Source of the DNA: a virus | Length of the DNA stretch: 56,459 nucleotides | IMG/VR virus record: IMGVR_UViG_3300046313_000796 | Location: 1-56,459 of that record | Direction: 5' to 3' (one strand) | Shown: one piece after another, positions 17,193 through 53,044 of the stretch | Layout of the letters: each line of letters opens with the position of its first letter | How positions within the stretch are numbered: position 1 is the stretch's first letter | Notes under the pieces: model-generated | Told to the model about the DNA's origin: nothing | Database searches by the model: none | Seen by the model: only the letters and a program-made list of their open reading frames with translations | Program-made: the position numbers and the translations under genes

Positions 17193-17972
17193 TTATTCGC
17201 CGAGAACTCGTTGTCTATTTTTATTTTGAAAGTAGGCTTCTCTGATCACTCTCACATTTTCAGTAAGGATATAATCAGCTTGTACTGCTCTTAAACCTTG
17301 ACAGACTAGATGCTGGAGATTATATTGTTTCAACCATTTTTCTAATTGAACACCAGTTTTAAATCCTAATTCTTTGGCTAATTGTGCCGTTGATTTACCC
17401 TCAAAGCTAACATTACTACTCCCTTTACAAACGATAGTTTCAGTTACTTTTTCGATTACTTCAACTACTGCTTCGGGATCGCCAACTAGAAAAGCAAAGG
17501 TTTGGATTCCATGTAAGGAAACGATGGCTTCGGTGCGGTTAAGATAATTAGTTTTTAATCTTAAATTACTATTCTCTAATTTGAGATTTTCATTTTGTAG
17601 TGTCAAGATTTGGATAGTTTCACTTTGTTGGGGTATAACTTCTTTGATTATTCTTTTGGCTTTAGAAAATGAATCAACTAAAGCTAATTTTAATTCCACA
17701 ACTCGGTCAGTATTTCTTGAAAATGTCATCAAGGTAGTTGCTTGATTTTCATTTAACCATGCAAATTTCTCAGGGCGACCACCCTGGCTACTTTCAGAGG
17801 GTTTATACGTTTCAAACGTAATAACCCCAAACTTACCTTCTAGCTTGTCTTGATGCTTTTTGATTGTTTCAAGTAAATTTTTATGTTGAATACCCAACTC
17901 CGACGCAATCAATCTTGAATCAACAACATTTTGATCGTTTAACTTTTCAATTTTCAATAAATCTGTTACCAT
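17193..17972 (-). CDS. Rha-family phage regulatory protein with C-terminal antirepressor-like domain
   Basis: 259 residues. The N-terminal Rha-like domain runs from about 12 to 110 (VVDSRLIASELGIQHKNLLETIKKHQ, GRPEKFAWLNENQATTLMTFSRNT, LKLALVDSF). A coiled linker (about 120-145) leads to a C-terminal domain (about 150-255) with helix-turn-helix-like TAQLAKELGFKTGVQLEKWLKQYNL. Rha proteins interfere with lysogenic development or act as antirepressors. The ATG at 17972 is set by a GGAG site and by the conserved leader. The gene lies downstream of a methyltransferase gene in the same direction, an arrangement repeated at 26818-28596 and 50885-53044. Confidence 0.8.
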   Translation of the reverse strand: MVTDLLKIEKLNDQNVVDSRLIASELGIQHKNLLETIKKHQDKLEGKFGVITFETYKPSESSQGGRPEKFAWLNENQATTLMTFSRNTDRVVELKLALVDSFSKAKRIIKEVIPQQSETIQILTLQNENLKLENSNLRLKTNYLNRTEAIVSLHGIQTFAFLVGDPEAVVEVIEKVTETIVCKGSSNVSFEGKSTAQLAKELGFKTGVQLEKWLKQYNLQHLVCQGLRAVQADYILTENVRVIREAYFQNKNRQRVLGE

Positions 17973-18062
17973 GAATATATCTCCTAGTTTATTTAAATGG
18001 TTTAGGATTCACTAGATGATATAAAGCAATTCATAATTTACGTTGTGGATTGCTTTTCTAGT
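17973..18062 (-). promoter_or_regulatory. Structured leader RNA, copy B
   Basis: On minus: closing stem CTAG/CTAG (18058-18061 with 18012-18015, replacing CGAG/CTCG of copies A and C), inner stem GCAATCCACAA/TTATGAATTGC, the conserved TTTATATCAT segment, then TCCTA complementary to TAGGA of the ribosome-binding site 10 nt before the ATG. The paired changes against the other copies support a real RNA fold. Confidence 0.75.
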
Positions 18063-18078
18063 CTTTACTTTCCTTTTT

Positions 18079-18095
18079 TTATTGTAACATTTTTA
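18079..18095 (-). promoter_or_regulatory. Promoter-like box upstream of leader B
   Basis: On minus it reads TAAAAATGTTACAATAA, identical to the box before leader C (27718-27734). TACAAT fits a -10 element, and the start would fall just before the leader stem. The -35 region is weak. Confidence 0.55.
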
Positions 18096-18122
18096 AGCTA
18101 TTTTTTAAGGTTTTACTTAATT

Positions 18123-18992
18123 TTAATTACCCGTAAACAAATCTTTTTGATTATTTTCTTCATGCCATTTAGCTATTCTATTTTTGCCAACTTCGTAATA
18201 TTCTTTATCCTTTTCAATACAAGTGTATTTGCGATTTAATTCTAAACAGGCTAGTGAAGTAGTAAAACTACCAGCGAAAGGATCAAGTATTAAATCACCC
18301 TCTTTTGTTGTTAATTCAATTAATTGTTTAAAGAGTTTGACTGGTTTTTGTGTAGGGTGTTGGAAGTGATAATGCTCTCTATTTACTGGCATAATACTTT
18401 TGAATAAACAGCCTCTCTGATGAATCTGATAAGTAGAAAAGGCTACGTCAAGCCCCTTCTTACACTGTCCCATTATTTTATGCTTTTCTTCTCTATTGAT
18501 CTTTTTTCTTGTCCAAAATATAAAATCTTCATAAGATTTTATATTTTTTATCCCCGCTAGGATTCGTTTATAGTCAAAAACGATCCCGTTGGGATTTATA
18601 GCTTCATCAAACTCTAATTTATCAATATAAATTCTATTCAGTTTACTTTTTTTTTTGCCAAATAGACTAGCTAATTCATGTAACCTACCTACTGGATGAC
18701 AAGGATTAGATAAATTCTTTTTATACCAAATCAACTCCTCCTTGAAAATAAAACCCAAATCATCACATATTATATTCCATTTTGATAACGGCACACCACG
18801 ACCAAAGAATAATAAAAAACCTGTATCTTTTAATACTCTAAAACATTCGCTAAACAATAATTGAGCATCGAAAGGACAGTCTAATTTGTGTTTGAGATAA
18901 CCATAAGGTGGATCAGTAATAACGGCATCAACTGAATTGTCAGGAATAGTTTTTAGAATATCAAAACAGTCGGCATGAAAAATTTTATTCAT
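18123..18992 (-). CDS. Beta-class DNA (N6-adenine/N4-cytosine) methyltransferase, paralog A
   Basis: 289 residues. S-adenosylmethionine-dependent DNA methylase with motif IV TDPPYGY at about 26-32 and motif I near the C-terminus (LDPFAGSFTT), the beta-class order. The last glycine of the FxGxG S-AdoMet loop is Phe here; the paralog at 26818 has FAGSG, so binding may be impaired. An A10 tract (18647-18656 on plus as T10) lies in the coding sequence and is in frame; slippage there would switch the gene off. It is divergent from nrdB (83 nt) and upstream of leader B and the Rha-type gene. Confidence 0.88.
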   Translation of the reverse strand: MNKIFHADCFDILKTIPDNSVDAVITDPPYGYLKHKLDCPFDAQLLFSECFRVLKDTGFLLFFGRGVPLSKWNIICDDLGFIFKEELIWYKKNLSNPCHPVGRLHELASLFGKKKSKLNRIYIDKLEFDEAINPNGIVFDYKRILAGIKNIKSYEDFIFWTRKKINREEKHKIMGQCKKGLDVAFSTYQIHQRGCLFKSIMPVNREHYHFQHPTQKPVKLFKQLIELTTKEGDLILDPFAGSFTTSLACLELNRKYTCIEKDKEYYEVGKNRIAKWHEENNQKDLFTGN

Positions 18993-19075
18993 AGTAAGAA
19001 AAGTAAATGTAGTTTAATTGTAAGCAAAAATAAGACAAAAATGTTAAAATAGAGAAAACGATACAGTCAAAACAA

Positions 19076-20092
19076 ATGAAAATATTTAATGCTTTAGGCA
19101 GTGACGAGATTAAAGATCGCAGTATTTTTAATGGGAATAGTACCAATATAAATAATTTGAATAATGTTAAATATTTATGGGGTATTCAATTATATAACCA
19201 AATGAGGGCGAACTTTTGGTTGCCACAAAAAGTAGATGTTGTGGGGGATATAAATTCTTATAATGAGTTAAGCATTCAAGAACGGACAGCTTATGACGGA
19301 ATTTTAAGTTACTTAATTTTTTTAGATTCAATTCAAACAGCAAACATCCCTTTTCTAGTTGGTAAAATCACCGCACCTGAGATAAGATTATGTTTACTTG
19401 AACAAGCGTCTCAAGAAGCTATGCACTCTGCTAGTTATCAATATTTAATCGAAACAATAATTCCCGTAGAGAAAAGAAATTATCTTTACAATTATTGGAG
19501 GAAGGATCAGGTTTTAGCAAAACGTTGTGAGGCGATCGCCAATTATTATCAAAATTTCATAAATACTAATTCAGATAATGATTTTATTTTATCGTTAGTT
19601 GCTAATTACTTTTTAGAAGGGATTTATTTTTATAACGGATTTATGTTTTTCTATAACTTAGCGGTAAGAAGTTTAATGTGTAATACAGCGGACATGATTA
19701 AATTAATACACCGGGATGAGTTAAATCATGTGAGATTGTACCAAAAGATTTTAGAAGAAAGTTTACAGCAAAATAAAATAGATGAAGAATCGATTTACAC
19801 TTTGTGTGAAAGTACGGTACAACAAGAGATAACATGGTCAGCTCATATTATAGGGAATGAAGTCTTAGGTATTACTGAAAATTCGAGTAAAAATTATACT
19901 CGTTACTTAGCTAATATGCGATTAAAAGCAATAGGATTAAATGCCATGTACGATACAGATTGCGAGAATCCTTATAAACATTTAGAGAATATTGCTGACG
20001 TTTCTAAAGAGGCGAGTTCCAAAACTAACTTTTTCGAGAGTAGTGTTACTTCTTATAACATGGCGACTAATGTGAGTGGTTGGGATTTTTAA
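19076..20092 (+). CDS. nrdB: Class I ribonucleotide reductase, beta (radical) subunit
   Basis: 338 residues. It supplies the tyrosyl radical for reducing ribonucleotides to dNTPs for phage DNA synthesis. All iron ligands and the radical Tyr can be placed: D84 (FLDSIQ), E114 and H117 (EAMHSASY), Y121, E181 (LEGIYF), E215 and H218 (RDELNH). The alpha subunit is not in this window, so NrdB must pair with a phage subunit elsewhere or the host enzyme. A GTTAAAAT box (about 19042-19049) lies upstream. It contains a HIP1 site and ends 4 nt inside the convergent gene at 20089. Confidence 0.95.
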   Translation: MKIFNALGSDEIKDRSIFNGNSTNINNLNNVKYLWGIQLYNQMRANFWLPQKVDVVGDINSYNELSIQERTAYDGILSYLIFLDSIQTANIPFLVGKITAPEIRLCLLEQASQEAMHSASYQYLIETIIPVEKRNYLYNYWRKDQVLAKRCEAIANYYQNFINTNSDNDFILSLVANYFLEGIYFYNGFMFFYNLAVRSLMCNTADMIKLIHRDELNHVRLYQKILEESLQQNKIDEESIYTLCESTVQQEITWSAHIIGNEVLGITENSSKNYTRYLANMRLKAIGLNAMYDTDCENPYKHLENIADVSKEASSKTNFFESSVTSYNMATNVSGWDF

Positions 20093-20529
20093 CTTTTTAT
20101 CTTTACTTTGGGGCGAAAGTATTGAGAACCTTTAGATACTTCCTCCGCTTTACTTAGAAAATCGGAGATAAAACATTCTTCTACCGACGAATAAATAGGA
20201 AAAGGATGATCCTCATCGTCGCTTCTAACAAATCCACTTTTCTTATCTTCATTCAAAAAGAGTATTTCGTTTTTAGATGTTTTATCCACGTTATGATTTT
20301 CAGAAGTGATGAATAGACAATTCTCTTGAGGTTTTTCTTTATCAAAGTCATAAGGATATAGCGATCCAATACATTCTGAAAAAAGAGATAAATTCTGGCA
20401 ATGTATTTCTTCTATTTTATATGGGATAACTTTTTCAAAAAATTCTTTACTACAAGTATTAGGGTGACAATCGATATAAATATAAATAGGTTTTATTCTT
20501 ATCAAATCACCTGATTTTAATAGTTTCAT
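20089..20529 (-). CDS. Hypothetical acidic protein
   Basis: 146 residues, soluble, four cysteines, many acidic residues in the middle (DEDHPFPIYSSVEECF) and a basic C-terminal tail. No family recognised. It overlaps the nrdB end by 4 nt tail to tail. Two 12-bp direct repeats (TTTGTATTACTT) sit right at and before its start. Confidence 0.5.
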   Translation of the reverse strand: MKLLKSGDLIRIKPIYIYIDCHPNTCSKEFFEKVIPYKIEEIHCQNLSLFSECIGSLYPYDFDKEKPQENCLFITSENHNVDKTSKNEILFLNEDKKSGFVRSDDEDHPFPIYSSVEECFISDFLSKAEEVSKGSQYFRPKVKIKS

Positions 20530-20559
20530 TTTGTATTACTTATTTTATTTGTATTACTT
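20530..20559. promoter_or_regulatory. Two direct repeats in a divergent promoter region
   Basis: TTTGTATTACTT occurs at 20530-20541 and 20548-20559, spaced 18 bp, immediately before the 20529 start and upstream of the divergent 20645 gene. GTATTAC occurs again near 20630 and in the palindrome at 54183-54218. This could be an operator, or chance in AT-rich DNA. Confidence 0.4.
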
Positions 20560-20644
20560 TCATCATACATGAATTTGATGTTAACGACTGAGATTTTAAC
20601 ATTTAACATTTTGTTAAGATAAAGATAGTGTATTACAGAATGTA

Positions 20645-20944
20645 ATGAATGGATTACCGCATTATTTTTTAATTGGACTAATAATCTCTTATGTTTATTT
20701 GTTATTACTAGGAAGCCAAGTAATGGAATTAAATAAAGGTTTCATGGAAATAACAGGAGCTTATCTCGGTTGGTTAACATCAGAGACAGCCAAAAGTAAA
20801 GAAATGGCATTTGTAATTGTTGTTTTGGTAGCAAGTCTTTTTATTGTAATGGTAATTCAGCCTGATAATTTACCTAGTATTGTTGGGCTTATTACTTTTA
20901 TTTCAGTTGGTTGGTTCGGTTCATTAACAAATCGTATAAATTAA
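20645..20944 (+). CDS. Small membrane protein, possible holin
   Basis: 99 residues with three probable membrane segments at about 7-24, 54-72 and 76-92, separated by a short polar helix (about 28-50). Size and topology fit a holin or other small phage membrane protein, but it is far from the endolysin at 49641 and no holin family signature is visible. It ends 4 nt before the subtilase start, so the two are probably cotranscribed. Confidence 0.5.
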   Translation: MNGLPHYFLIGLIISYVYLLLLGSQVMELNKGFMEITGAYLGWLTSETAKSKEMAFVIVVLVASLFIVMVIQPDNLPSIVGLITFISVGWFGSLTNRIN

Positions 20945-20948
20945 AATT

Positions 20949-22565
20949 ATGGACGCTATAAATCCACTCATTATCTCAAATCTTCTCACTACAGAAAACA
21001 GCTTATTAAATTTAGGACAAACTCTTACTATACAATCTTTTAAAACTAATGATGATTTAATTACTACTGCTCGTAATACAAGTATAGTATTTAATCCTTT
21101 AGAAAATGATGAAGGATTATCATGGTTAAGATCATATACTTCGCCAAAGAATGGAACAATTACCAGAGGGGGAAATAATAGTTTAACCTATATCCCAAAT
21201 ATGGGTTTTATGGGTGTCGAAAACTTAGTATATAAAGGACAATTAGATCAATTAATAGCAAAAGGGAATATAACGATTAACGTAGTTGATAGCGAACGAC
21301 TACCCATCGAAATAAATAAGTCACCTATAGCTAAAGATGATTTATTCAATACAACAAATGACAGATCAATTAACTTTAATCCTTTGTCGAACGATACAGA
21401 CCCTGAAAATAAACCATTAACAATTAGTAATATTACAACTCCGCTAAATGGTAGCTTGATTAAAAACGGGAATGAATATATATTCGCCCCTAACAATAAT
21501 TTTGTTGGGAGAGAATATATTGACTATGAAGTTTCAGATGGTATTAATACATCAATAGCCAAAGTAATAATTGAGGTGACACAATCAACTATCGAACCCA
21601 CACCGATTCTACCACCGTCGATACCCGAAAAGCCATTATTAAATTTAGGGAGAAAAGAGTTTAATTTAAATACGGGTTATGGATTAATTAATGCTAATGA
21701 GTTAGTAAATATTGCATTAGGAAATAGCTCTTTATTTGATAATGTACCTAATTATGAAGGGGTAAATGGGAATTATTTAAATTTAATAAATGTACCCGAA
21801 GTTTGGATAAAAGGCTATACCGGTAAAGGGGTAACAGTAGCCGTGATAGATCAAGCTATAAATATTCAACATACTGATCTTAAAAATAATATTTGGGTAA
21901 ATAAAAACGAAATAGCAGACGACGGATTAGATAACGATAGTAATGGGTTTGTAGATGATCTTAACGGCTGGAATTTCAGAACAAATAATAATAATTTAAT
22001 AACTAATGGTGGACATGGAACTCATGTTATGGGTTTGGTTAGTGCAGAGAATAATTCTATTGGTAATACTGGCGTTGCTTTCAATTCTTCTCTTATGCCT
22101 ATCGAAGGGTTAATCACATGGGATACTGTCGAGAAAAGTATTTATTATGCCGTCAATAATGGTGCTAATATTATTAATTTATCTTTAGGTGGGGGTCAAG
22201 TTAATTCTATAAGAACAGCTTTACAATATGCAAAAAATAAAGGTATTGTAGTAGTAGCATCTGCTGGTAATGATAGCAGTGAATCACCCATTTATCCAGC
22301 CGCTTTTGCTAAAGAAGGATTGGCGATCGCCGTTGGAGCTTATAATGAAAATTTCAGTAATAAAGCTGGTAATGATAACAATATGCTTTATGTCACAGCT
22401 GGAGGAGAAGGTATTAGTACAGTAGGATTTGATGATTTTGGGAATAAAAGAGGTACTTCCATGTCTTCTCCTTATGTCGCTGGTGTAGTTGCTTTAATGT
22501 TAGAGGCAAACCCTAATCTCACACCTGCTCAAGTTTATAATATTTTCACTCAGAAATATGTTTAA
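20949..22565 (+). CDS. Subtilisin-family (S8) serine protease with N-terminal cadherin/Ig-like domains
   Basis: 538 residues. Two cadherin-like Ig-fold repeats (about 45-113 and 127-210; each has a NPL.ND and NG(S/T)...P...F.G.E pattern) precede a Pro-rich linker and an S8 peptidase domain from about 275. The triad is complete: D301 (VAVIDQ), H356 (GGHGTH), S504 (GTSMSSP), with oxyanion N441. There is no signal peptide. The adhesion-type repeats suggest a virion-bound or extracellular protease, or maturation of phage proteins. Such proteins are common in cyanobacteria and may have come from a host. Confidence 0.9.
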   Translation: MDAINPLIISNLLTTENSLLNLGQTLTIQSFKTNDDLITTARNTSIVFNPLENDEGLSWLRSYTSPKNGTITRGGNNSLTYIPNMGFMGVENLVYKGQLDQLIAKGNITINVVDSERLPIEINKSPIAKDDLFNTTNDRSINFNPLSNDTDPENKPLTISNITTPLNGSLIKNGNEYIFAPNNNFVGREYIDYEVSDGINTSIAKVIIEVTQSTIEPTPILPPSIPEKPLLNLGRKEFNLNTGYGLINANELVNIALGNSSLFDNVPNYEGVNGNYLNLINVPEVWIKGYTGKGVTVAVIDQAINIQHTDLKNNIWVNKNEIADDGLDNDSNGFVDDLNGWNFRTNNNNLITNGGHGTHVMGLVSAENNSIGNTGVAFNSSLMPIEGLITWDTVEKSIYYAVNNGANIINLSLGGGQVNSIRTALQYAKNKGIVVVASAGNDSSESPIYPAAFAKEGLAIAVGAYNENFSNKAGNDNNMLYVTAGGEGISTVGFDDFGNKRGTSMSSPYVAGVVALMLEANPNLTPAQVYNIFTQKYV

Positions 22566-22571
22566 GATTAA

Positions 22572-22643
22572 TCCATGATGCAGGAGTTGAACCTGCCTAA
22601 CACAAATTATGAGTTTGCTGTCTAACCGCTCGACCATACATGG
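22572..22643 (-). tRNA. tRNA with CAT anticodon (Met or Ile2)
   Basis: 72 nt on minus: acceptor CCATGTA/ATCATGG (five pairs, then two mismatches at 6-67 and 7-66), D stem GTC/GAC with GG in the loop, anticodon stem GCAAA/TTTGT with loop CTCATAA, T stem GCAGG/CCTGC with loop TTCAACT, discriminator A. CCA is not encoded. CAT could mean elongator Met or Ile2 after lysidine modification; the sequence alone does not decide. The mismatched acceptor base suggests possible decay. Confidence 0.78.
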
Positions 22644-26259: not shown

Positions 26260-26317
26260 CTTTTTATCCTTACTCTTTATTTCAATTATACTACATACTA
26301 AATAAGCCTTATAAAAT

Positions 26318-26602
26318 TCTTTTAGGTACGATTAATCCTTTCCTTACTTCATTCGCCTTGTTTAGCTAAATAATCAGCAATACAAAGAATAATTAGTTAT
26401 TTGTTTAATGGCTCTTTTTCTTAAACAGAAAAAAGAAAAAATAATTTTTTTTGCATAATTAACTTGATCTTTATTTTTTTAATTATGAGTTTATTGATCT
26501 TAATTATGTATATCGAAAACCTGTTAACAGGTAACCTAATGACAGGAAACCTAATATCAGGCAACCTGTTGATAGGAACTCGTCAATTGGCTTTTTTCTA
26601 TG
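26318..26602 (-). repeat. Dispersed element R2 (copy 2 of 3, inverted)
   Basis: About 285 bp, the reverse of R1 and R3. The iteron block lies at its right end (about 26515-26585, units such as CCTGTTAACAGGTAA). It sits in the 558-bp divergent gap between the prohead protease (minus) and methyltransferase paralog B (plus). A plus frame from TTG 26464 encodes hydrophobic residues then TGNL/SGNL pentapeptide-like units, conserved in all three copies, running beyond the repeat to 26745. I do not call it as a gene. Confidence 0.85.
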
Positions 26603-26666
26603 GGAAAGTCATATCCTATAGATATATCTCTATGCGTTGTCAATTAGGTGAAGCAGGAAGGAAACA

Positions 26667-26817: not shown

Positions 26818-27690
26818 ATGAATCAAGTTTTTCATGCCGACTGTTTTGATATTTTAAAAACTATTTCTGACAATTCAGTAGATGCTGTTATTACTGATCC
26901 ACCTTATGGTTATCTCAAACACAAATTAGACTGTCTTTTCGATGCGCAATTACTCTTTACTGAATGTTTCAGAGTGTTAAAAGATACAGGTTTTTTATTA
27001 TTCTTTGGTCGTGGTTTTGAGTTTGCTAAATGGAATGTAATATGTAGTGAATTAGGTTTTGTGTTTAAAGAAGAATTAATCTGGTATAAAAAGAGAGCGA
27101 GTAGCCCGTATTCAATAGTTGGTAGAATCCACGAATCTATAAGTTTGTTGGCAAAGAAAAATAGTAAATTAAATAAAGTTTATGTGGATAAAATAGAATT
27201 TGATGAGGCTATGAATCCTAAAATAATTAATCAAGATTATAAAAGAATATTATCTGACATCCATAAAATAAAATCGTCATAAGATTTTATTTTATGGTCA
27301 AATGAATTAACTGAACATAAAAATAAACACAGTATAACTACAGGTGAAACTAAGAAAGATTATGCTCGTAGTTATTCTACTTATAAAGCACATCAAAAAG
27401 GGGTTGGTTTAAGAAGTATAGTCCCGATGCAAACAGAGCATTATCACTTCCAACACCCTACACAAAAACCCGTTAAACTCTTTAAGCAATTAATTGAATT
27501 AACCACAAAAGAAGATGATTTAGTAATTGATCCTTTCGCTGGAAGTGGTACAACGGCGATCGCCTGTTTAGAATTGAATCGCAATTATATCTGTATAGAA
27601 AAGGATCAGGAATATTTTGAAGTGATAGAAAATAGGATTACTAAATGGCATGAAGATAATAAACAAAAAGACTTGTTTACGTGTAATTAA
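26818..27690 (+). pseudogene. Beta-class DNA methyltransferase, paralog B, with in-frame stop
   Basis: Full-length paralog of the 18123 gene. Residues 1-154 carry DPPYGYLKHKLDC; the frame then meets TAA at 27280-27282 where the paralog has Glu (SYEDF versus SS-stop-DF), and continues in the same frame to 27690 with HYHFQHPTQKPVKLF and an intact motif I DPFAGSGTT. So a single nonsense codon splits an otherwise complete gene. It contains a HIP1 site. It is followed by leader C and the DinD-like gene, mirroring the inverted block at 17193-18992. Confidence 0.85.
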
Positions 27691-27717
27691 TTTTAAGTAA
27701 AACTGTAATTTAATAGT

Positions 27718-27734
27718 TAAAAATGTTACAATAA
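27718..27734 (+). promoter_or_regulatory. Promoter-like box upstream of leader C
   Basis: TAAAAATGTTACAATAA, the same 17-mer as at 18079-18095 (minus). TACAAT at 27727-27732 fits a -10 element and predicts a start just before the leader stem. Confidence 0.55.
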
Positions 27735-27750
27735 ACAAAGGTATGATGAA

Positions 27751-27843
27751 ACGAGAAAAGCAACTCACAATCTTACCAATTATGAATTGCCTATATATCA
27801 TCTCGTTCCCCTAAAGGAATTTAAACAAGTAGGAGATAAACTT
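27751..27843 (+). promoter_or_regulatory. Structured leader RNA, copy C
   Basis: Closing stem CGAG/CTCG (27752-27755 with 27802-27805), inner stem GCAACTCACAAT/ATTATGAATTGC with two C-A mismatches that become pairs in other copies, conserved CTATATATCAT, then CCTA able to pair with TAGG of the ribosome-binding site at about 27831. An open frame from TTG 27787 runs through the leader but is unlikely to be used. Confidence 0.75.
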
Positions 27844-28596
27844 ATGGTAACAGATTTCAATTTAAGTTTGCAAGGTACGGTTTCACCATTCGATAGATTA
27901 AGACGTATTGATGAAAATGGTAAAGAATATTGGTCAGCTCGTGAGTTAATGCCGTTATTAGGTTATTCAAAATGGCAAAATTTCTTTTCTGCAATAGAGA
28001 ATGCTATTGAGAATCTTGAAACCGTTACTGAGAATGTCGATAACCACTTTTTACTTCTAGAAGTAAAAAGTCTAGGACGACCATCTGTCGATTATAAATT
28101 AACAAGATTAGCTAGTTATCATGTAGCTATGGCTTGTGATTCACGAGGTAACGAACAAGTAAAAATGGCAAAACATTATTTTGTTGTCAAAACTCGTCAA
28201 GCTGAACTTCAACAAGCACCCGTACAACCTAAATTACCAAGTCGTGTAGTAGCACTTGAAACAGCAGAATGTATCAGTGGTATTTATAAACATATTGGTG
28301 AGGATAATCCACGATTAGCACAATTTTTAATTGACCATGCTATCAGTGATTTAATGCCAAGTAGTAATAATCTTTTAGTAGGGGAAGAATTAAAAGGAGT
28401 TGTTGAGATTGCAGAAGAAATGGGTTTGCCAGTCAACATTAAAAATCGTAGTCAACTCGGTAAATTTGTTAAAAGTTCATGCGGACATTTAGCAATTCAA
28501 GAAAAACGATTAGTTAATGGACGTATGCAACCAGTCGCTTGTTATCCATGCTACAGTGAAGAAGTTAAAGAAGCTATACAACAATTCTTTGCTTAA
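27844..28596 (+). CDS. DinD/BRO-like antirepressor-type protein
   Basis: 250 residues from ATG 27844, chosen because GGAG lies 8 nt upstream and the longer frame would start inside the leader stem. The N-terminal 110 residues resemble DinD (SPFDRLRRIDENGKEYWSARELMPLLGYSKWQNF, then the YFVVKTRQAE helix). The C-terminus (about 180-250) has a helix-turn-helix-like part and the LGKFVK...QEKRLVNG...EAIQQFF module, shared with the decayed gene at 12172. DinD modulates RecA in E. coli; phage relatives are likely regulators. Confidence 0.75.
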   Translation: MVTDFNLSLQGTVSPFDRLRRIDENGKEYWSARELMPLLGYSKWQNFFSAIENAIENLETVTENVDNHFLLLEVKSLGRPSVDYKLTRLASYHVAMACDSRGNEQVKMAKHYFVVKTRQAELQQAPVQPKLPSRVVALETAECISGIYKHIGEDNPRLAQFLIDHAISDLMPSSNNLLVGEELKGVVEIAEEMGLPVNIKNRSQLGKFVKSSCGHLAIQEKRLVNGRMQPVACYPCYSEEVKEAIQQFFA

Positions 28597-34502: not shown

Positions 34503-34776
34503 ACAAAAAATAAAAGACTTGATAGATGAGTATTTATTTTCTGAAACGGGGATATCCCATGACGAATACGAAACTATATTAAATACCGAGATTAATACAT
34601 CGAATTTCAATAGAATACAAACGAAACTTTATAAATGTGAAAAAACTCTTAAAGAAATATGCAAGTTATTAGATACCCTAGATTTTTCTTACTCAATAGA
34701 CCAGGCTCATTATGAGAAATTGAGAGAAATAACAGCAATAAGAGATTACTCTAAATGTCATAAATCTCATTCATAA
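34483..34776 (+). CDS. Hypothetical small protein
   Basis: 97 residues from ATG 34483, preferred to the longer frame from 34324 because GGGGAG lies 8 nt upstream and the longer part is out-of-frame helicase sequence. Helical and acidic; no family recognised. It overlaps the helicase by 20 nt and ends 26 nt inside the convergent repeat gene, its last codons lying in the degenerate start of the 69-bp repeat. Confidence 0.45.
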   Translation: MNKTELEQKIKDLIDEYLFSETGISHDEYETILNTEINTSNFNRIQTKLYKCEKTLKEICKLLDTLDFSYSIDQAHYEKLREITAIRDYSKCHKSHS

Positions 34777-34993
34777 AACTGGTATCAACTGGACAAGCAT
34801 TAACATTAATAACTGGAAACGGGGTAAAATATATCTCATCCATAAAACTGGTATCAACTGGACAAGCATTAACATTAATAACTGGAAACGGGGTAAAATA
34901 TATCTCATCCATAAAACTGGTATCAACTGGACAAGCATTGATCCCAGTTGAATTATTAATTTGAGCTAAAACTCCTATAAAAAAATTAGGCAT
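34751..34993 (-). CDS. Small tail-region protein with 23-residue repeats
   Basis: 80 residues: an 18-residue N-terminus, then the unit NACPVDTSFMDEIYFTPFPV(INV) twice and a partial third. Each unit has one Cys and a conserved acidic or aromatic patch. ATG follows the stop of the 34994 gene directly (TAAATG), so they are coupled. It is the last gene of the tail-tip module; an accessory tail-fiber part is the likeliest role. Confidence 0.45.
   Translation of the reverse strand: MPNFFIGVLAQINNSTGINACPVDTSFMDEIYFTPFPVINVNACPVDTSFMDEIYFTPFPVINVNACPVDTSFMNEIYDI
34772..34939. repeat. 69-bp direct tandem repeat, 2.4 copies
   Basis: Units at 34772-34840 and 34841-34909 appear identical, with a partial third at 34910-34939. 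The unit is 23 codons, so copy number could change without breaking the minus-strand reading frame. Confidence 0.9.
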
Positions 34994-35909: not shown

Positions 35910-38900
35910 TTAAGTTAATTTTCCTACTATTGTCCATAAATTACTACCAAGATGTATTACTTGAGCTGTATCATATTTTGCTACTAAAGTACTTCCTCCA
36001 GAGTCTAATGTACCGATCGCCACAAAAGTAATTATATTAGTACCAGCGTTTTGAACAGTACAAGTAAACCCAGTAGTTAAACCATTGGGTAATGTAATTG
36101 TGATTGCATTACTTGCCCGGATAAAAGAATTATAATCTGATTCAGCTAACGTTGTATTAGTTGTGATTACTCTTATCCCTATGGTAGTAATTGGTTTGTT
36201 ACTTAAATCATTATAGCTTATCTGTAAATTGCCCGAACCTAAAAGACTATTATTATTAATGCTTTTTAGATTGGTCTGATTAACCAAAGTTGCTTGTTTG
36301 GCATTAAGAGCATTTTGTAAATCCGTCTGATTACTTAACGTACCAGTCAACAAACCCCAAGCGATTCCAGAACTGGTCAAAGAAACACTTGCAGTATTAC
36401 CTCCTAAGTTAGTGATTGTAGCGTTACTAAAAATGATTGTAGCAATATTAGGATAATTACTAACACCATCATTTAAAGTAATATCACTAGATGGTAAATT
36501 ATAAAATCCTTTAGTTCCAAGTGCATTACTACCATAATATTGATTAGTGCTAACTGTACCACTTATGTTAGCTGCCAAATCTACGATCCCATCATTATTA
36601 GTATCATAAATCGACTTATTCATATCACCAATACCGCTACCAATAGGGAAGCCATAAAACCCTTTAACACCACTAGCATTAGTACCGTAATATTGATTAA
36701 TACTTGGTGAACCAGCGATATTAGTAGCAATATCGGCAGAGTTTACAACACCATCATTGTTACTGTCATAAGTTGATACCTCCATATCACCCGTAGCGAT
36801 AGGCAAATCGTAAAATCCTTTAATATTACTTGCATTAGTACCATAGTAATAATTAGCTAAAGTTGATCCATTTATTGATTCAGCACTATCTACAATCCCG
36901 TTATTGGTAGTGTCATAAACCGAAGTAAGCATATCTCCGATCCCATTACCAATAGGGAAGTTATAAAAGCCTTTAATATTACTTGCATTAGTTCCGTAAT
37001 ATTGAGTGGACGAAGGTGAACCAACAATATTGGTAGCAAGATCAGCTAATTCAGCAATATCAACTTTGCCGTTATTGGTAGTATCATAAGTCGATTTAAG
37101 CATATCGCCACCTAATGGCAAAGCATAAAATCCTTTACTATTACTTGCATTAGTACCATAGTAATAATTAGCTAAAGTTGATCCATTTATTGATTCAGCA
37201 CTATCTACAATCCCATTATTGGTAGTATCATAAACAGATTTAACCATATCCCCACCGGATGGAGGTAAATCGTAAAACCCTTTAATGTTACTTGCATTAG
37301 TACCATAATATTGATTTATAGATGTACTTCCGCTTACTGCTGTAGAAAAATCTACAATTCCATTATTGTTAGTATCGTAAGTTGATTTGAGCATATCGCC
37401 CGTACCAATACCAGTAGGGAAAGTATAAAAACCTTTAAATCCGTTACTATCTGTACCATAATATTTATTGGCTGGAATAATACCTGCTAAATCTTGGGCT
37501 AAATTTACAACACCATCGTTATTAGTATCATAAATCGATTTAAGCATGTCTCCCGTCACCGAGATATTAATAGTAGCAATACCGCTACCACTATTGGTTA
37601 TACTTGCACCGTTAAAATTTAGTTGACTTACATCATTTATAGTTGTAATACCATCAGTGACTGAATCTAATTGACCACCAGTCGAATCAATGGTTAAAGT
37701 ATTGAGAAAATCATTATAGGTCAAATTAACATTATTACCAGCAATCAATAAAGAAGCTACTCTATCATCAACACCCTCATTAAAATTAGGGATTGTAGTA
37801 GGATCAATTATTAAATTCCCCGCACCTAACAACGTAGTATTGTTAATACTTTTGATATTAGTTTGATTGACTAGCAAAGGTTGTAACGCATCTAAAGCTG
37901 TTTGTAACCCACTAATTGTTACGATCGCCTGTGTACCTGTGTGATTAGTCCTATCTAAATAAAATTCAGGTAATTCACCACCTAATGTGTCCGCATCAAT
38001 ATTACCAGTAATGCCTGTTATCGGTGTAGGGTTTGTAATAGTAGCTTCTCCCGCATAACCACGACCTACTATAGAACTTACCCTATACACCTTGACATCA
38101 AAAGGCAACGTTATACCGTCTGTTATTTGATCAACATTAAAATAAGTAATATTTTGTGCATTGGTAGAAAAAGTACGCACCACGCTATTACTTGTATTTA
38201 AAATATCAATTTCATAAGTAATTATTTCAGTACCATTTTGAAAAGGAGAGTTATTTATATAAGGATAATCCCATGTAATTGTTATATTGTCAGCATCATC
38301 TATCTGGCTTTCGATATTAGTAGGGGCTAAAGGAATATAATTATTGCCTACTGTGTTGACTGTATTAGTAGGGGTTGCATTCAAATCTTGCCAAGGGGCT
38401 ATAACTGGTTGGTAAGTAATTGATTGACCTACATTGAGAGTATTGGCATAAAAAGAATAATAAGCCCCATCACCTTTTAATAAAAAGAATTTATCGCCAA
38501 CGTTGTTATTGCTATTAAAATTTTGCGTATTGAAAATACTTCTTTGCAGGTAATTTATAGTATATCTATCATTCCCTAAAGGTAAAACATCTCTAAATTG
38601 TATTAATTCACCTTCCCATACACCATTATTTTGACGAGCTATTAATGCCAAATTAGAACCCGTATTAAATTGACTTGCACTAATTGACGATAAACTGCCA
38701 CTAAATAATTGTACATTCAAAGTATTAACAGTATCTAAACCAGTTGCTGATGGTAATGCGGTTTCACATTCACCAATCGTAGAAGTAGCTGTGTGATTGA
38801 CGGAGGCGATATAACTATTACCTCCGTCAAAACTGATATTTACAGTAGTCGGTGCGTCCGCACAGATATAAAGAGTATTCGGTGGATTATTAGGATTGAT

Positions 38901-47013: not shown

Positions 47014-47021
47014 ATTGCCGA

Positions 47022-47729: not shown

Positions 47730-48055
47730 TTTTTTTTACTCCTATTTTCATTTATTAAATCTAATTCAACCTGTATAGCTGGAATCAAAACAATCAACTG
47801 ATTTTTTAGGCTTTTTCTTCTTAAGGAATTAGCTAAATAAAAGTCATCGGGATGGGTATAATTTTCTATTCCAAACTCTCTCAAATATTCTTCGGCTTCC
47901 TTATCATTCACAAAATCAAAACTATGTAAAAAAGGAAACAACCCATCTATTACAGATTTTGCTTGTATAAAAGCTAATAAGGGCTCTATATACGATGCTT
48001 CTAAAGGAATCACCGACTGAACTATCTCAACTATTTTCTGTTTATATTTATTCAT
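47726..48055 (-). CDS. Hypothetical protein
   Basis: 109 residues, soluble, helical; no family recognised. It overlaps the pentapeptide gene by 4 nt (ATGA) and follows a 52-residue gene by 3 nt, so three genes form one minus-strand operon. Confidence 0.5.
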   Translation of the reverse strand: MNKYKQKIVEIVQSVIPLEASYIEPLLAFIQAKSVIDGLFPFLHSFDFVNDKEAEEYLREFGIENYTHPDDFYLANSLRRKSLKNQLIVLIPAIQVELDLINENRSKKK

Positions 48056-48058
48056 TTT

Positions 48059-48217
48059 TCAATCCAAACAATATTCTACTGTTTTTACATTAGTTAATAC
48101 TTTTGTTTCCCAAAACTTCTTACATTTTTCTTCTCGTAAGTCATCGTAGGTCAAAGACAATATTTTATCATCTTTGAAAATATCAACACCATCTCTAAAT
48201 ATCTGTAGTTTAAACAT
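48059..48217 (-). CDS. Small hypothetical protein
   Basis: 52 residues from ATG 48217, with AAAGAGAT just upstream. MFKLQIFRDGVDIFKDDKIL and the WETKVLTN part give a protein-like mix; start, spacing (stop 3 nt before the 48055 ATG) and operon context support it. Family unknown. Confidence 0.55.
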   Translation of the reverse strand: MFKLQIFRDGVDIFKDDKILSLTYDDLREEKCKKFWETKVLTNVKTVEYCLD

Positions 48218-48268
48218 ATCTCTTTTTATCAAGTACACTTTTGATTATACAGAAATATCTTAAGAGTG

Positions 48269-48565
48269 TTAATCTATTTTAATGATCTTTATTTCTACTA
48301 CGGGGTAAATTTCTATTATATCTACTCCTAACGCAATGGCGATAAGGTTTAGGTTATCTTTAGCTATCGTCGGCACTAATCCTGTTTCTATTTTCTCTAA
48401 CAAGCCATTACTAATGCCTGTTAAGTCTGCTAATCCTTTTCTAGTTACATTTCTAGTTTTTCTTAAGTTACTTAAATTCACTCCTAACGATTTATCCCAT
48501 CTTAAAAAAATAGCGTTTTCTAAATGTACGGTAATCATAACATTATATTTAATTATTTTCTGCAT
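48269..48565 (-). CDS. XRE-family HTH regulator
   Basis: 98 residues (or 89 from ATG 48538). Typical Cro/CI HTH: WDKSLGVNLSNLRKTRNVTRKGLADLTGISNGLLEKIETGLVPTIAKDNLNLIAIALGV. It shares the WDKS(L/M)G lead-in with the 13952 protein. Divergent from the methylase-like gene at 48612, so it probably controls this intergenic region. Confidence 0.8.
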   Translation of the reverse strand: MQKIIKYNVMITVHLENAIFLRWDKSLGVNLSNLRKTRNVTRKGLADLTGISNGLLEKIETGLVPTIAKDNLNLIAIALGVDIIEIYPVVEIKIIKID

Positions 48566-48611
48566 TTTAGTTTAACATAGTTTTATAAACAATTTCATTT
48601 TAAGGAAAAGA

Positions 48612-49655
48612 ATGGATTTACAATTAGGATTTTTGGCAGAGGAAAATGAAATCATAGAGACTGAGGTTAAAGTAGAAAAAATAGAACAGCTCGTATTAAC
48701 TCAAGGAATAATTGAACCTAGAAAAGCAAAAGAAGATAGTACAGCTTTAAATTATTGGAAGTCATGGAAGCCTAAAGATAGAAGTAAGTTAGGGAAAGCT
48801 GATCACACTTACAAATTAACTCATGGTTGGTTAATGCCTTATTTAGTTGGCATTGACGAGTTCACAAATAAACGTTGGGAATATTGGGCAAAAGTACAAA
48901 GATTATCGCCCGTTGCCTATTATGAATATTTAACTAAAGGTGTAACTGATAAGTTTGTAGCGGAAGCTATACACTGTCACGATTACCCTGAAATAAGTTT
49001 TTCTGAAGATACTACTACTTTAAATTATCTTAATTCTGTTATTGATTTAATTTGTGGCGATCGCTCAATTAGCGGAATAGATGCTTTTGAATTTCTATTA
49101 GATTGGTTATTATTTGGGTTCGGGCATGAAGATTTTACAGAATTACCAGAATCCCCTTCTCGTGACAAGGCAATAAATAAGAAACTGTATGAATATTTTG
49201 ATTTATTCCCTTTGTTAATAAATCCTTATGATTATTTTGGGCTTATGTTACCTGAGTTATTTAATCAAGGGCGTAATCAAAAAGTTGGTTTTTTCCCAAC
49301 TCCTATGACTATCTGTATCGCTATGACTGAAATGATTAGCGGGAATGATAAACCTACTATTCAAAGATTTCAAGAATCGTCAGCTGGTACTGGAAGTCTT
49401 GTTTTAGCATGGTCAAAAAAAGGATTATGTGCAAGTATCACAGAATTATCTAATACTTGCACTAAGGCTATTTTGGTTAATTGTTATCTTTACGCCCCAC
49501 AATACGCACGTCCTTTATTTTATTTAGCAGAACAAAGTACTTTTATTTGTGGGAATGCTCTCAGTAATGAGATATTCCACGATTACCACGCTAAATATAA
49601 AAAAATAATTGCTGATGATTTCCGAAATCATTTTGCTGTTTTAACTAAAAAATAA
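48612..49655 (+). CDS. N6-DNA methylase-like protein without clear catalytic motif
   Basis: 347 residues. The C-terminal half has a class I methyltransferase-like GFFPTPMTICIAMTEMI, then FQESSAGTGSLVLAW (motif I-like), ITELSNTC and ICGNAL. An (N/D)PPY motif is not visible and the protein ends soon after ICGNAL, so it is likely truncated or non-catalytic. The N-terminal 200 residues are unrelated to known domains and Trp-rich. It contains a HIP1 site. It overlaps the endolysin gene end by 15 nt. Confidence 0.6.
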   Translation: MDLQLGFLAEENEIIETEVKVEKIEQLVLTQGIIEPRKAKEDSTALNYWKSWKPKDRSKLGKADHTYKLTHGWLMPYLVGIDEFTNKRWEYWAKVQRLSPVAYYEYLTKGVTDKFVAEAIHCHDYPEISFSEDTTTLNYLNSVIDLICGDRSISGIDAFEFLLDWLLFGFGHEDFTELPESPSRDKAINKKLYEYFDLFPLLINPYDYFGLMLPELFNQGRNQKVGFFPTPMTICIAMTEMISGNDKPTIQRFQESSAGTGSLVLAWSKKGLCASITELSNTCTKAILVNCYLYAPQYARPLFYLAEQSTFICGNALSNEIFHDYHAKYKKIIADDFRNHFAVLTKK

Positions 49656-50075
49656 ATCAAGCTCTGCTTTTCTACGACGGTCAAGTCCTGCGGAGGGCTT
49701 CCCGTTTATTTTATTCCACCTTTTTAATTCTGTCTCAGCACTTTGATAATCTTTTCGATTTATTTTTTTTCGAAGAGTTGATTCTTTAAAAGCATTTAGT
49801 CCTACATTAAAAGCAAAACTTGTTAAAGCTCCTAATTGTTGTTTAGTTAACGGCACTGTTACCAAATCCTCTATTTGTTTTGATAACTTTTCTAACTCAA
49901 GATAAAGCATCCCTTCCGCTTTCACTCTATTCATAGTGTCACTCATTTTTACTGATTTCCCATTTACTCTTGTAAACCCATAACCAATCGTAGGCACTCC
50001 CGCAGGACATAAATATGCCTTCTCCCTAAAACTTTCAAACTCCTTCACTAAATCAAATGCTTTTTTCTCTATCAT
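49641..50075 (-). CDS. Endolysin (GH24 lysozyme)
   Basis: 144 residues. T4-type lysozyme for host lysis: FESFREKAYLCPAGVPTIGYG with catalytic E14 and the typical LCPAG in place of the T4 Asp, then LTKQQLGALTSFAFNVG and the C-terminal LDRRRKAELDLF. No signal or membrane anchor; export would need a holin. Repeat R3 lies upstream. Confidence 0.92.
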   Translation of the reverse strand: MIEKKAFDLVKEFESFREKAYLCPAGVPTIGYGFTRVNGKSVKMSDTMNRVKAEGMLYLELEKLSKQIEDLVTVPLTKQQLGALTSFAFNVGLNAFKESTLRKKINRKDYQSAETELKRWNKINGKPSAGLDRRRKAELDLFFS

Positions 50076-50157
50076 TTTTAATACTAATTGTAGTAAGGCA
50101 TATTACAATTCTATTTTACATCTATTTTCCATAGGCTTTTTTCTATGCTTATTGTAT

Positions 50158-50446
50158 TTACGATAGAGAAAAGCCAATTGACGAGTTCCTATCAACAGGT
50201 TACCTGATATTAGGTTTCCTGTTATTAGGTTACCTGTTAACAGGTTTTCGATATACATAATTAAGATCAATAAACTCATAATTAAAAAAATAAAGATCAA
50301 GTTAATTATGCAAAAAATTTATTTTTTCTTTTTTTCTGTTTAAGAAAAGAAGCCATTGAAAAATAACTAATTATTCTCTGTATTGCTGATTATTTAGCTA
50401 AATAAGGCTAATGAGGTAAGTAAAGGATTAATCATACTTAAAGAAA
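50158..50446 (+). repeat. Dispersed element R3 (copy 3 of 3)
   Basis: About 289 bp, same direction as R1, with four iteron units around CCTGTTAACAGG. On minus the frame 50103-50300 gives hydrophobic residues then TGNL/SGNL units, as in the other copies. It fills the 417-bp divergent gap between the endolysin and the 50493 gene, like R2 in its gap; I see no other gene there. Confidence 0.85.
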
Positions 50447-50492
50447 CTTTAAAAGAGTAAAATAATGAAATAAAGCAATGATCAAATAAAGA

Positions 50493-50690
50493 ATGAGAAA
50501 AGAGCAAAGACATCCGTTAGCACATATTGACAGGCAAATAGTCAAAAGTTTTTTTGTGGAAGGAATGAGTGATTTCAATTTGACTGAATTAGCTCGGTTA
50601 AAAATCCATCACTATAATTTTTCAGGTGCAACCGATATACGATTCGATCTCGATAGCATTATGAATCAATGGGAATTAACTGAAGATTAA
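50493..50690 (+). CDS. Small hypothetical protein
   Basis: 65 residues: MRKEQRHPLAHIDRQIV, then EGMSDFNLTELARLKIH. Protein-like, no family recognised; it starts directly after R3 with only a weak ribosome-binding site (AGAATGAG). Confidence 0.4.
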   Translation: MRKEQRHPLAHIDRQIVKSFFVEGMSDFNLTELARLKIHHYNFSGATDIRFDLDSIMNQWELTED

Positions 50691-50776
50691 CTTTACGAAA
50701 AAACTAAAGTAATTTATGCGAAAGAGATTTTTCTAATTTCGATTCTGAGAGTGAAGAAGATTGGAGTTAATAAAAA

Positions 50777-50796
50777 ACCTCCTCTGATCGGGAGGT
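50777..50796 (-). terminator. Terminator-like hairpin (minus direction)
   Basis: ACCTCC/GGAGGT with an 8-nt loop, followed on minus by TTTTT. It lies 89 nt after the 50885 gene, downstream of the larger hairpin at 50835. Confidence 0.6.
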
Positions 50797-50834
50797 AAAA
50801 TAATTTAATTAATAGGTTATAATGGAAACAACAA

Positions 50835-50876
50835 AACCCGACACAGCTCTGCTAAGTATCTGCAAAGAATCGGGTT
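50835..50876 (-). terminator. Large-loop hairpin after the BRO gene
   Basis: AACCCGA/TCGGGTT with a 28-nt loop, ending 9 nt from the stop of the 50885 gene and followed on minus by TTTTGTTGTTT. A terminator with an unusual loop that may fold further (GCAGAT...AGC). Confidence 0.55.
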
Positions 50877-50884
50877 ACTCAATT

Positions 50885-51607
50885 TTAGGCTTTGGCTAGT
50901 GCACCGTATTTTTTATCTAAATAAACTGGCATTTTAAGGGGGACATATATTGTCTCCAAACATTGTGCAAAATATCCTAATTCACAGAAGTCATAGGCTT
51001 TTATAACCCGTGTCCCACGATGATTGTCAAGATGATAGATAGCCGTACTACTTTCAACTGCCCATTCTTTACTACTGCGATACGAACTCCAATGAATACC
51101 AACCGACCCATCGAGTAAATCAAATATATCTATTGGATAACCTAGCTTTTCTACTCGCAACATCAAATAGTTTGCTTTTTCTGCGATGCACCAAGTATTA
51201 GGTTGCTTAACTAGATTTTTCTCTAAATCCATAATGCGATCTGAGTAAACGGTAATTGCTTTTTTAGGTTGCTCAACTGAATAACTACCAGTTTGTCTAA
51301 TACTTGGTAAGATTTCCTCAAATACCCATTTTTGAAATTGTTTAGCTGTTTCTAAACGAGATTTAAAGATTAGTTGATAAATACCAGCCTCTTTAGTAAT
51401 TATCAATACCTTCTCAATTCTTGGCTTGTTTTCCCCATATCTGATGGTGGGCATTTGATGTAATGTCAAATAATCTGGATCGATTAAGTCTTTTATCGCT
51501 GTTTTGGGAGTAGCATAACCTAATGCTTTTGCTACATCGATCGCCACTGGATTACCATCTACAAAACGAATATCTTGACTATCAAACTGAAATCGTGTTA
51601 AATTCAT
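50885..51607 (-). CDS. BRO-N/antirepressor protein
   Basis: 240 residues. N-terminal BRO domain (about 8-105): FDSQDIRFVDGNPVAIDVAKALGYATPKTAIKDLI, KEAGIYQLIFKSRLETAKQFQKWVFEEILPSIRQTGSY. The C-terminal part (about 130-235) is distinct, possibly HTH. BRO-N phage proteins act as antirepressors. The ATG is fixed by AGGAG and leader D. The gene lies downstream of a methyltransferase gene in the same direction. Confidence 0.85.
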   Translation of the reverse strand: MNLTRFQFDSQDIRFVDGNPVAIDVAKALGYATPKTAIKDLIDPDYLTLHQMPTIRYGENKPRIEKVLIITKEAGIYQLIFKSRLETAKQFQKWVFEEILPSIRQTGSYSVEQPKKAITVYSDRIMDLEKNLVKQPNTWCIAEKANYLMLRVEKLGYPIDIFDLLDGSVGIHWSSYRSSKEWAVESSTAIYHLDNHRGTRVIKAYDFCELGYFAQCLETIYVPLKMPVYLDKKYGALAKA

Positions 51608-51694
51608 ATTAACTCCTAGTTGCTTAACTACTTTTAGGGGTTACGGAATGATATACAGCAATTCATAATTAACAGTTATGGGTTGCTTTTCCGT
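51608..51694 (-). promoter_or_regulatory. Structured leader RNA, copy D
   Basis: On minus: closing stem CGG/CCG (51691-51693 with 51644-51646), inner stem GCAACCCATAA/TTATGAATTGC, conserved TGTATATCAT, then CCTA pairing with TAGG of the ribosome-binding site. It differs from copies A to C by compensating changes in the closing stem. Confidence 0.7.
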
Positions 51695-51756
51695 TTCTAT
51701 AACTATTTATATATAAGTCTTTGAAGATTTTAAATCTACTTAATTAGTCTGTAATT

Positions 51757-53044
51757 CTAACTGTTCAATTTTATTTTGGTTGCTGATATTCTTTGATTAA
51801 TTATGTTTAAATATTCTTCTTCTTTTTCGATTAGAACATAATTAAAACCTGTTTCTATTGCACTTACTGCCGTTGTACCACTGCCTCCAAAAGGATCAAG
51901 TACAATTCCATTAGGGGGAGTAATTAACTCGATGAAATATGCCATTAAATGCCGTGATTTAACTGTCGGATGATCATTATTGACTAATCCTTTACAATTC
52001 CTATCAGTTGTGGATGCTTTGGCTTTGTAGTATATGCTATTGACTGTATCTGTATCAAAAGGTAAGTTTTTAAAATATCTCGCCGCCGTTCCTTTATCCT
52101 CAAAATAAACACCGCTTTTATACGGATTACTTTTAAATTTTACTGAATTATCCTTCGTGTATGTATCGTAATTATAGTCACTTGCTCTACTGACAGATTC
52201 CCCACTTTGATCGCCAATAACATTAACAGGACAATCTTTAGCGTGATTATTTTCTTGGCAGTTAATACCACATGATAAAATTAAATTAGCTGGATAAAGA
52301 CCGATGTTAGGATTGTGACCATCTTCTGATCCTGTTTCTTTTCCTAGCCCACTGTGATAAATATTAGTCTTCTCTTTTTTTTGAAAAACCACAAGGCACT
52401 CTTTTATTAGTACCAATCCTACCTGCATCAATATTTAATCCGCCCGTACCGTGTTTAAGAATATTTCTAACAATACTAGATTCTGAACATTTTTTCTGCC
52501 CCAACCACCAACCTTCGATCGCAGGTTTCAACGCAGGAGTTTTCCAACCATCCCATCGCTTTGCTAATTCACTTGATGATTTTGTGATTTTAGGGTTATC
52601 TTGCCATGAACCACCAAGTGCATTCGTACCATCCTTACATCCCCTTGCGGATGTAAGGATGCCTATAACCTCTCTTTCTTCTCCTAACATCCGATCAATC
52701 TGCTTACTCACATCTTGCCCTTTTTGAAATCCGCCGCCATTTGCATGGTGTACAATGTCAATAATTCTAAAACCAGCTAATTCTAAAGCCATACCAGTCC
52801 AGTGAGAGGTTCTAGGAATACTCCATACTAAACCAATTGCACCAGGCTTCATGGTACGCATGGCTTCGTTCATTACCTCTGATAACCAATTAATCCAATT
52901 AAGCATACCACCCTTGTTATCATCCCATTTCATGGACATAAAGCTGATCGAAGAAGGTGGATCAGTAATTAAAGAATCAAAATAATTATCGGGGAATGTT
53001 TTTAATACTTTTAAACAATCACCATGCAAAACTTGGTTAATCAT
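51757..53044 (-). pseudogene. Beta-class DNA methyltransferase C, frameshifted at an A8 tract
   Basis: Residues 1-226 from ATG 53044 (TDPPSSISFMSMKWDD, GGSWQ) end in RVPCGFSKKRED-stop; the rest of the enzyme (KEKTNIYHSGLG...LDPFGGSGTTAVSAIETGF) runs in the frame one base later, reaching 51757. The frames meet at eight A (T8 on plus, 52375-52382). One A fewer restores a single 1288-nt reading frame; a +1 slip in translation or transcriptional slippage would do the same. DPPS instead of DPPY is a further variation. It heads the BRO-N cassette. Confidence 0.8.

What the first reader, a model, noticed from the sequence alone, without database searches (positions are those of the whole stretch)
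17193..53044. Repeated cassette: DNA methyltransferase, leader, antirepressor
Three times a beta-class methyltransferase gene is followed in the same direction by the conserved leader and an antirepressor-type gene: 18992 to 17193 (minus), 26818 to 28596 (plus) and 53044 to 50885 (minus). The antirepressors belong to different families, so only the methyltransferase-leader arrangement is shared. The first two also share the promoter box and the 3' end of the methyltransferase at DNA level, so they arose by duplication and inversion. This may be a module that couples DNA methylation status to lysogeny control.
Basis: partly seen in the sequence, partly recalled or inferred. Interest (0 to 1): 0.85.

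Follow-up and report, generated by a model that had tools for sequence, protein, structure and literature searches.

The report
RNA leader shared by phage antirepressor genes
A temperate bacterial virus (probably of cyanobacteria) carries at least six copies of one promoter plus folded RNA leader, each in front of a different lysis/lysogeny-type regulator gene; DNA methyltransferase genes are common but expendable neighbours, so the regulators, not the methylases, appear to be what the leader controls.

Summary
The three methyltransferase–leader–antirepressor cassettes exist where stated. Two of the three methyltransferases are broken (in-frame TAA at 27280-27282; frameshift at an A8 run near 52376). 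A fourth leader (15366-15457, minus) precedes a KilA-N gene and follows hemB, not a methyltransferase. With a covariance model built here I found ten full leaders in two related temperate phages. All ten lie directly upstream of a regulator gene (Rha, Bro-N, Ant-like, KilA-N, HTH/T5orf172 types); only six follow a methyltransferase. At one orthologous site the methyltransferase is present in one phage and absent in the other, while leader plus antirepressor remain. The leader is a structured RNA: stem P1–P2, then hairpin P3 that pairs the Shine-Dalgarno sequence; two-sided compensatory changes occur in 12 of 21 pairs (0 of 500 shuffles). A private extended -10 promoter precedes nine of ten copies. 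Nothing matches in Rfam. Best reading: a new family of translational cis-regulatory RNA in front of several unrelated antirepressor-type genes.

The parts
18123..18992 (-). MTase1, intact beta-class N6/N4 DNA methyltransferase (DPPY early, FAGS late)
   Evidence: PF01555 E=1.3e-36
18078..18114 (-). private extended -10 promoter (..TTAAAAATGTTACAAT..) between MTase1 and the leader
   Evidence: the 37-nt block, up to 7 mismatches, is found only at leaders
17973..18064 (-). leader RNA copy 1 (P1-P2, P3 pairing the Shine-Dalgarno)
   Evidence: CM 100 bits, E=8e-18
17193..17972 (-). Rha-family regulator / antirepressor
   Evidence: PF09669 E=2.5e-15; PHROG anti-repressor/Rha
26818..27690 (+). MTase2, interrupted by TAA at 27280-27282 inside the loop of a perfect palindrome
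27699..27735 (+). private extended -10 promoter, copy 2
27749..27843 (+). leader RNA copy 2
   Evidence: CM 85.7 bits, E=6e-15
27844..28596 (+). Bro-N antirepressor-type gene (ATG at 27844 behind the Shine-Dalgarno)
   Evidence: PF02498, PHROG Ant
51757..53044 (-). MTase3, frameshifted at an A8 run (~52376), DPPS instead of DPPY
51608..51697 (-). leader RNA copy 3 (promoter block degenerate here)
   Evidence: CM 87 bits, E=3.5e-15
50885..51607 (-). Bro-N antirepressor
   Evidence: PF02498 E=3.6e-18; PHROG 130 anti-repressor Ant E=1.4e-30
15463..15499 (-). private extended -10 promoter, copy 4
15366..15457 (-). leader RNA copy 4, NOT preceded by a methyltransferase
   Evidence: CM 91.5 bits, E=4e-16
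14787..15365 (-). KilA-N + T5orf172 regulator downstream of leader copy 4
   Evidence: PF04383 E=2e-12, PF10544
15620..16600 (-). hemB-like (porphobilinogen synthase) gene upstream of leader copy 4
   Evidence: reading of the translation; not profile-tested

Best explanation
A block of about 140 nt (private extended -10 promoter, then a ~95-nt structured 5' leader) is a repeated expression unit for antirepressor-type genes of a temperate phage. The transcript starts just 5' of the leader (inferred from the promoter). P1 and P2 form a long interrupted stem with a conserved 7-9 nt bulge (UAUAUCAU-like); a second, weak hairpin P3 pairs CCUA with the UAGG of the Shine-Dalgarno sequence. The leader therefore holds translation of Rha, Bro-N, KilA-N or Ant proteins low until P3 opens. 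Shown: structure by covariation, linkage to regulators, promoter exclusivity, reduced predicted Shine-Dalgarno accessibility. Inferred: that a common trans factor or condition acting on P1-P2 opens or locks P3, so several regulators respond together. The methyltransferase upstream is a frequent, probably ancestral neighbour, separated from the leader by that promoter, and is being lost.
For: Ten full copies, all immediately upstream of a regulator gene. Covariation: 12 of 21 pairs with two-sided changes, 94.7% of cells paired, 0/500 shuffles, slid controls 24-37% (this alignment was fitted to the model, but an arm-by-arm count done by hand gives 95% paired, 0/5000 shuffles). P3 is kept, with a bulge or one mismatch, when the Shine-Dalgarno changes from AGGAG to AGAGG (L037, L042, L054). 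Shine-Dalgarno predicted less accessible than in 62 other phage genes, p=0.005. Promoter block only at leaders. At orthologous sites regulators swap (Ant-like vs Rha at G003:41473 / G002:25126) or the MTase is missing (G002:21614), leader kept. Serine integrase present.
Against: P3 is weak (hairpin segments -2 to -7 kcal/mol). No conserved alternative pairing between P1 and P3 was seen, so a two-state switch is not demonstrated. Only two related phages carry it. No expression data. The downstream genes of L031/L032 are only weakly assigned (HTH-like, T5orf172).
Confidence: 0.66

Rival explanations
1. Functional MTase-leader-antirepressor module in which methylation state (of DNA, or the methylase itself) feeds lysogeny control.
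For: MTase upstream of 6/10 full leaders plus one truncated copy; 7/9 MTase loci followed by a leader. The four MTase-less copies keep an MTase-like 3' tail.
Against: MTases repeatedly broken beside intact regulators; at one orthologous site each phage has lost the other partner; MTase absent at the L042 site; a separate promoter between MTase and leader.
Confidence: 0.1
2. The leader is only a recombination seam: conserved sequence that lets regulator and methylase genes be exchanged by homologous recombination, with no RNA function.
For: Regulators and MTases do swap around it; the homologous block runs from the methylase 3' tail to about the start of the regulators.
Against: Compensatory changes in P1, P2 and P3 and the maintained pairing after Shine-Dalgarno changes are not expected of a pure homology tract.
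Confidence: 0.1
3. C4-like antisense RNA: the 5' part is processed off and pairs in trans with the start regions of the regulators.
For: Same position (upstream of antirepressors) as phage P1 C4 (PMC8201110); several related copies could cross-talk.
Against: No Rfam C4 match; complementarity between the P1-P2 part and the start regions is no better than shuffles and not conserved (mean z -0.5).
Confidence: 0.1
4. Leader peptide (uORF M-N-C-...-stop, 10 codons) controlling translation by coupling or attenuation.
For: Five of the six type-A copies can be read as a 10-codon ORF ending in the conserved CCUAA.
Against: No start codon there in L037, L042, L048, L054; frame lost in the KilA-N copy; no Shine-Dalgarno before it.
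Confidence: 0.02

Closest known systems
C4 antisense RNA of phages P1/P7 (Rfam RF01695)
   Same: RNA element transcribed upstream of an antirepressor operon in a temperate phage and regulating Ant (PMC8201110; listed among structured RNAs in PMC2864571).
   Different: Different sequence and fold; no Rfam hit; no conserved antisense complementarity; here the element pairs the gene's own Shine-Dalgarno in cis and is repeated before unrelated regulators.
Sar antisense RNA controlling ant in phage P22 (from memory)
   Same: RNA control of antirepressor translation.
   Different: Sar is encoded antisense; this leader is sense, 5' and structured.
Shine-Dalgarno-sequestering leaders (translational riboswitches, RNA thermometers, protein-autoregulated leaders; general knowledge)
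   Same: Structured 5' domain followed by a hairpin holding the Shine-Dalgarno.
   Different: No known aptamer matched; the ligand, protein or condition is unknown.
Orphan beta-class phage DNA methyltransferases (PF01555)
   Same: MTase1 and the phage B copies are ordinary members.
   Different: No restriction partner seen in the neighbourhood; several copies are broken; located upstream of a regulator leader.

Membership tests
C4 antisense RNA (RF01695) | match to the family covariance model | tested here: not met
   No hit at gathering threshold for the window or at relaxed thresholds for the copies scanned
C4 antisense RNA (RF01695) | segments complementary to the ribosome-binding region of the target | tested here: not met
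   Duplex energies within shuffled range, mean z -0.5 over 10 copies
Cis-acting translational leader | covarying structure upstream of the gene | tested here: met
Cis-acting translational leader | Shine-Dalgarno paired by a conserved helix | tested here: met
   P3 can form in every copy though weak; accessibility p=0.005
Cis-acting translational leader | expression changes with a signal | not testable with these tools
   needs reporter assays
Restriction-modification system | cognate restriction nuclease next to the methylase | tested here: inconclusive
   Neighbours are regulators; two of the leader-led genes carry T5orf172 (GIY-YIG-like) domains; no restriction nuclease family among the neighbours tested
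Beta-class N6/N4 DNA methyltransferase (PF01555) | PF01555 match with DPPY before the FxGxG-type motif | tested here: met
   MTase1 and the phage B copies; MTase2 and MTase3 are interrupted
Phage antirepressor/regulator (Rha, Bro-N, KilA-N, Ant) | N-terminal domain profile match | tested here: met
   L031/L032 genes only weak
Temperate phage | integrase | tested here: met
   485-aa serine recombinase in G003, phrog_95 integrase E=1e-59; no tyrosine integrase

The most novel reading that the evidence does not exclude
A single RNA regulon for lysogeny: one phage- or host-encoded factor (or ligand, or temperature) reads the P1-P2 element and releases or blocks translation of five or six structurally unrelated antirepressor-type proteins at once, so that the phage's decision circuitry is wired by a shared, freely transplantable leader rather than by the proteins.
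Probability: 0.3. Interest if true: 0.8.

Novelty: new variant of a known kind. Interest (0 to 1): 0.6.

Why it matters
RNA control of phage antirepressors is known from a few enterobacterial phages, one antirepressor at a time. Here an RNA family with no Rfam match is repeated in front of unrelated antirepressor-type genes in a probable cyanophage, which makes it directly testable whether a phage can place many regulators under one post-transcriptional signal.

Tried and rejected
Rfam at gathering and relaxed E-values: nothing for the leader. Leader peptide: rejected, not conserved. C4-like antisense pairing: no signal. Active phase variation of MTase2/MTase3: both sister contigs show the same state, so no evidence of switching, though MTase2's loop orientation is reversed relative to intact copies. 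Leader in cellular genomes: one exact-pattern scan of GTDB genomes gave two hits that the models do not support. Wider phages: pattern scans and scans with MTase1, BroN3, Rha, Ant-like and major capsid proteins returned only the same contigs, chance pattern hits, or distant loci without a leader. Cultured phages: no close relative found.

Full report
OBSERVATION. The window is a 56,459-base virus record, 31.7% G+C. The three cassettes are there. Cassette 1 (minus): MTase1 18992-18123, leader, Rha-family gene 17972-17193. Cassette 2 (plus): MTase2 26818-27690, leader, Bro-N gene 27844-28596. Cassette 3 (minus): MTase3 53044-51757, leader, Bro-N gene 51607-50885. MTase1 and MTase2 are inverted homologues along most of the gene. 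Only MTase1 is intact. MTase2 has an in-frame TAA at 27280-27282 and MTase3 is frameshifted at an A8 run; both lesions are identical in two sister contigs. A fourth leader lies at 15366-15457 (minus), before a KilA-N/T5orf172 gene and after a hemB-like gene.

THE LEADER ELSEWHERE. An exact-pattern scan of IMG/VR and a covariance model built from six copies (R1) led to four sister records: G001 and G003 (same phage as the window, here 'A'; G003 extends it to >100 kb) and G002 and G004 (a related phage 'B', about 72-86% identical to A in syntenic blocks). Searching whole records gives ten distinct full leaders: A - Rha, Bro-N x2, KilA-N, Ant-like (G003:41473), HTH/T5orf172 (G003:59178); B - Bro-N x2 (one gene truncated), Rha, HTH-like (G002:39373). 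One further copy is truncated (L026, G004 ~12.9 kb; seen by eye, it does not reach model threshold). All ten sit directly upstream of a regulator gene. The assignment of the two HTH/T5orf172-type genes as antirepressors is weak. All Bro-N loci found in these records carry the leader; most KilA-N loci do not.

METHYLTRANSFERASES. Six of ten full leaders, and the truncated one, follow an MTase or its remnant; the KilA-N, Ant-like, G002 Rha and G002:21614 Bro-N copies do not. Of nine MTase loci, seven are followed by a leader (G004:57-803 and the G002:1-246 fragment appear to be two parts of one gene, inferred from matching end sequences). This is well above what random placement would give, but the copies are related by duplication and are not independent. 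At the BroN3 site phage A has an MTase and phage B does not, while leader and Bro-N remain. At the BroN2 site A has a broken MTase and an intact Bro-N gene, B the reverse. The four copies without an MTase are homologous to the others back to about position -70 from P1, that is, into a stretch matching the last five or so codons of the MTases (TTGTTTNCGTGTAATT). The simplest reading is that the ancestral unit had an MTase which has been lost or replaced; an alternative is that this stretch is simply part of the promoter region.

STRUCTURE. P1 (6 bp), P2a (5-6 bp), P2b (4-5 bp) and P3 (4-7 bp). P1 reads ACUAGA/UCUAGU, ACGAGA/UCUCGU, ACGGAA/UUCCGU or ACAGAC/GUCUGU in different copies; P2b CAUAA/UUAUG, GUAA/UUAC or CUUA/UAAG. 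On nine copies 12 of 21 pairs show two-sided change, with 0 of 500 shuffles as high and slid controls far lower (that alignment was fitted to the model, so I also counted helices by hand: 95% paired, 0 of 5000 arm shuffles). P3 joins CCUA to the UAGG of the Shine-Dalgarno, and remains possible, with a bulge or one mismatch, in three copies whose Shine-Dalgarno is AGAGG. Predicted Shine-Dalgarno accessibility is lower than in 62 other genes of these phages (medians 0.26 vs about 0.42, p=0.005). A 37-nt promoter block with an extended -10 (TGTTACAAT) precedes nine of ten leaders, and with up to seven mismatches it is found nowhere else in these records.

MECHANISM. The most likely working: each regulator is transcribed from its own promoter with a 5' leader whose P3 hairpin damps translation; P1-P2, with its conserved bulge, is the likely receiving part for a shared signal. 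The structure, linkage and promoter conservation are shown; the signal, and the direction in which it acts, are inferred. A 485-aa serine integrase (G003) and Cro/CI-type HTH proteins make lysogeny control plausible.

COMPARISON. Functionally nearest is C4 RNA of phage P1, which regulates Ant (PMC8201110) and is a listed structured RNA (PMC2864571); membership fails on sequence model and on antisense complementarity. No Rfam family matched, so this looks like a new RNA family of a known general kind.

LIMITS. Two related phages only; metagenome collection not searchable; genome collection scanned once with an exact pattern; no expression data. A cyanobacterial host is inferred from HIP1-like GCGATCGC sites and gene content and was not tested.

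Noticed in passing
window 16679-16995(-), 26308-26634(+), 50130-50463(-): About 310-nt noncoding repeat, 77-92% alike, containing palindromic CCTGTTAACAGG/AGGTAACCT units; folds better than shuffles (z -3.5); also in sister phages, often just downstream of leader-led antirepressor genes or next to MTases. Possible operator array, ncRNA or replication/partition site.
   Followed up: partly
window 27260-27293 versus 18512-18545: The stop in MTase2 lies in the 7-nt loop of a perfect palindrome whose loop is reversed relative to MTase1 and to the two intact phage B homologues, as after a hairpin-loop inversion or template switch.
   Followed up: partly
window ~52376 and ~18650: A8 run at the MTase3 frameshift and an in-frame A10 run in MTase1: candidate slippage tracts, but no variation among sister contigs.
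   Followed up: partly
window 15620-16600: A hemB-like (porphobilinogen synthase) gene carried by the phage, beside the KilA-N leader.
   Followed up: no
window 50885-51607: C-terminal half of the Bro-N antirepressor resembles the BstA abortive-infection family (phrog_6287, E=2.6e-8).
   Followed up: no
window 14553-14640: Long near-perfect hairpin (42-nt arms, 88% complementary, 4-nt loop) inside the ORF 14741-14391.
   Followed up: no
L048 (G001:540-3634) versus L054 (G002:23627-26712): Same genomic site holds an Ant-like gene in one phage and a Rha gene in the other, each behind a leader of the same subtype: regulator swap behind a constant leader.
   Followed up: yes
L026:3850-4020 (G004 ~12.9 kb): Leader truncated in the P2 loop and fused to sequence like that found downstream of the KilA-N gene in the window (deletion of leader 3' half plus regulator).
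   Followed up: partly
window 34760-34966 and 36493-37553: Tandem 69-nt repeats and diverged ~150-nt repeats in or beside the large tail gene region.
   Followed up: no
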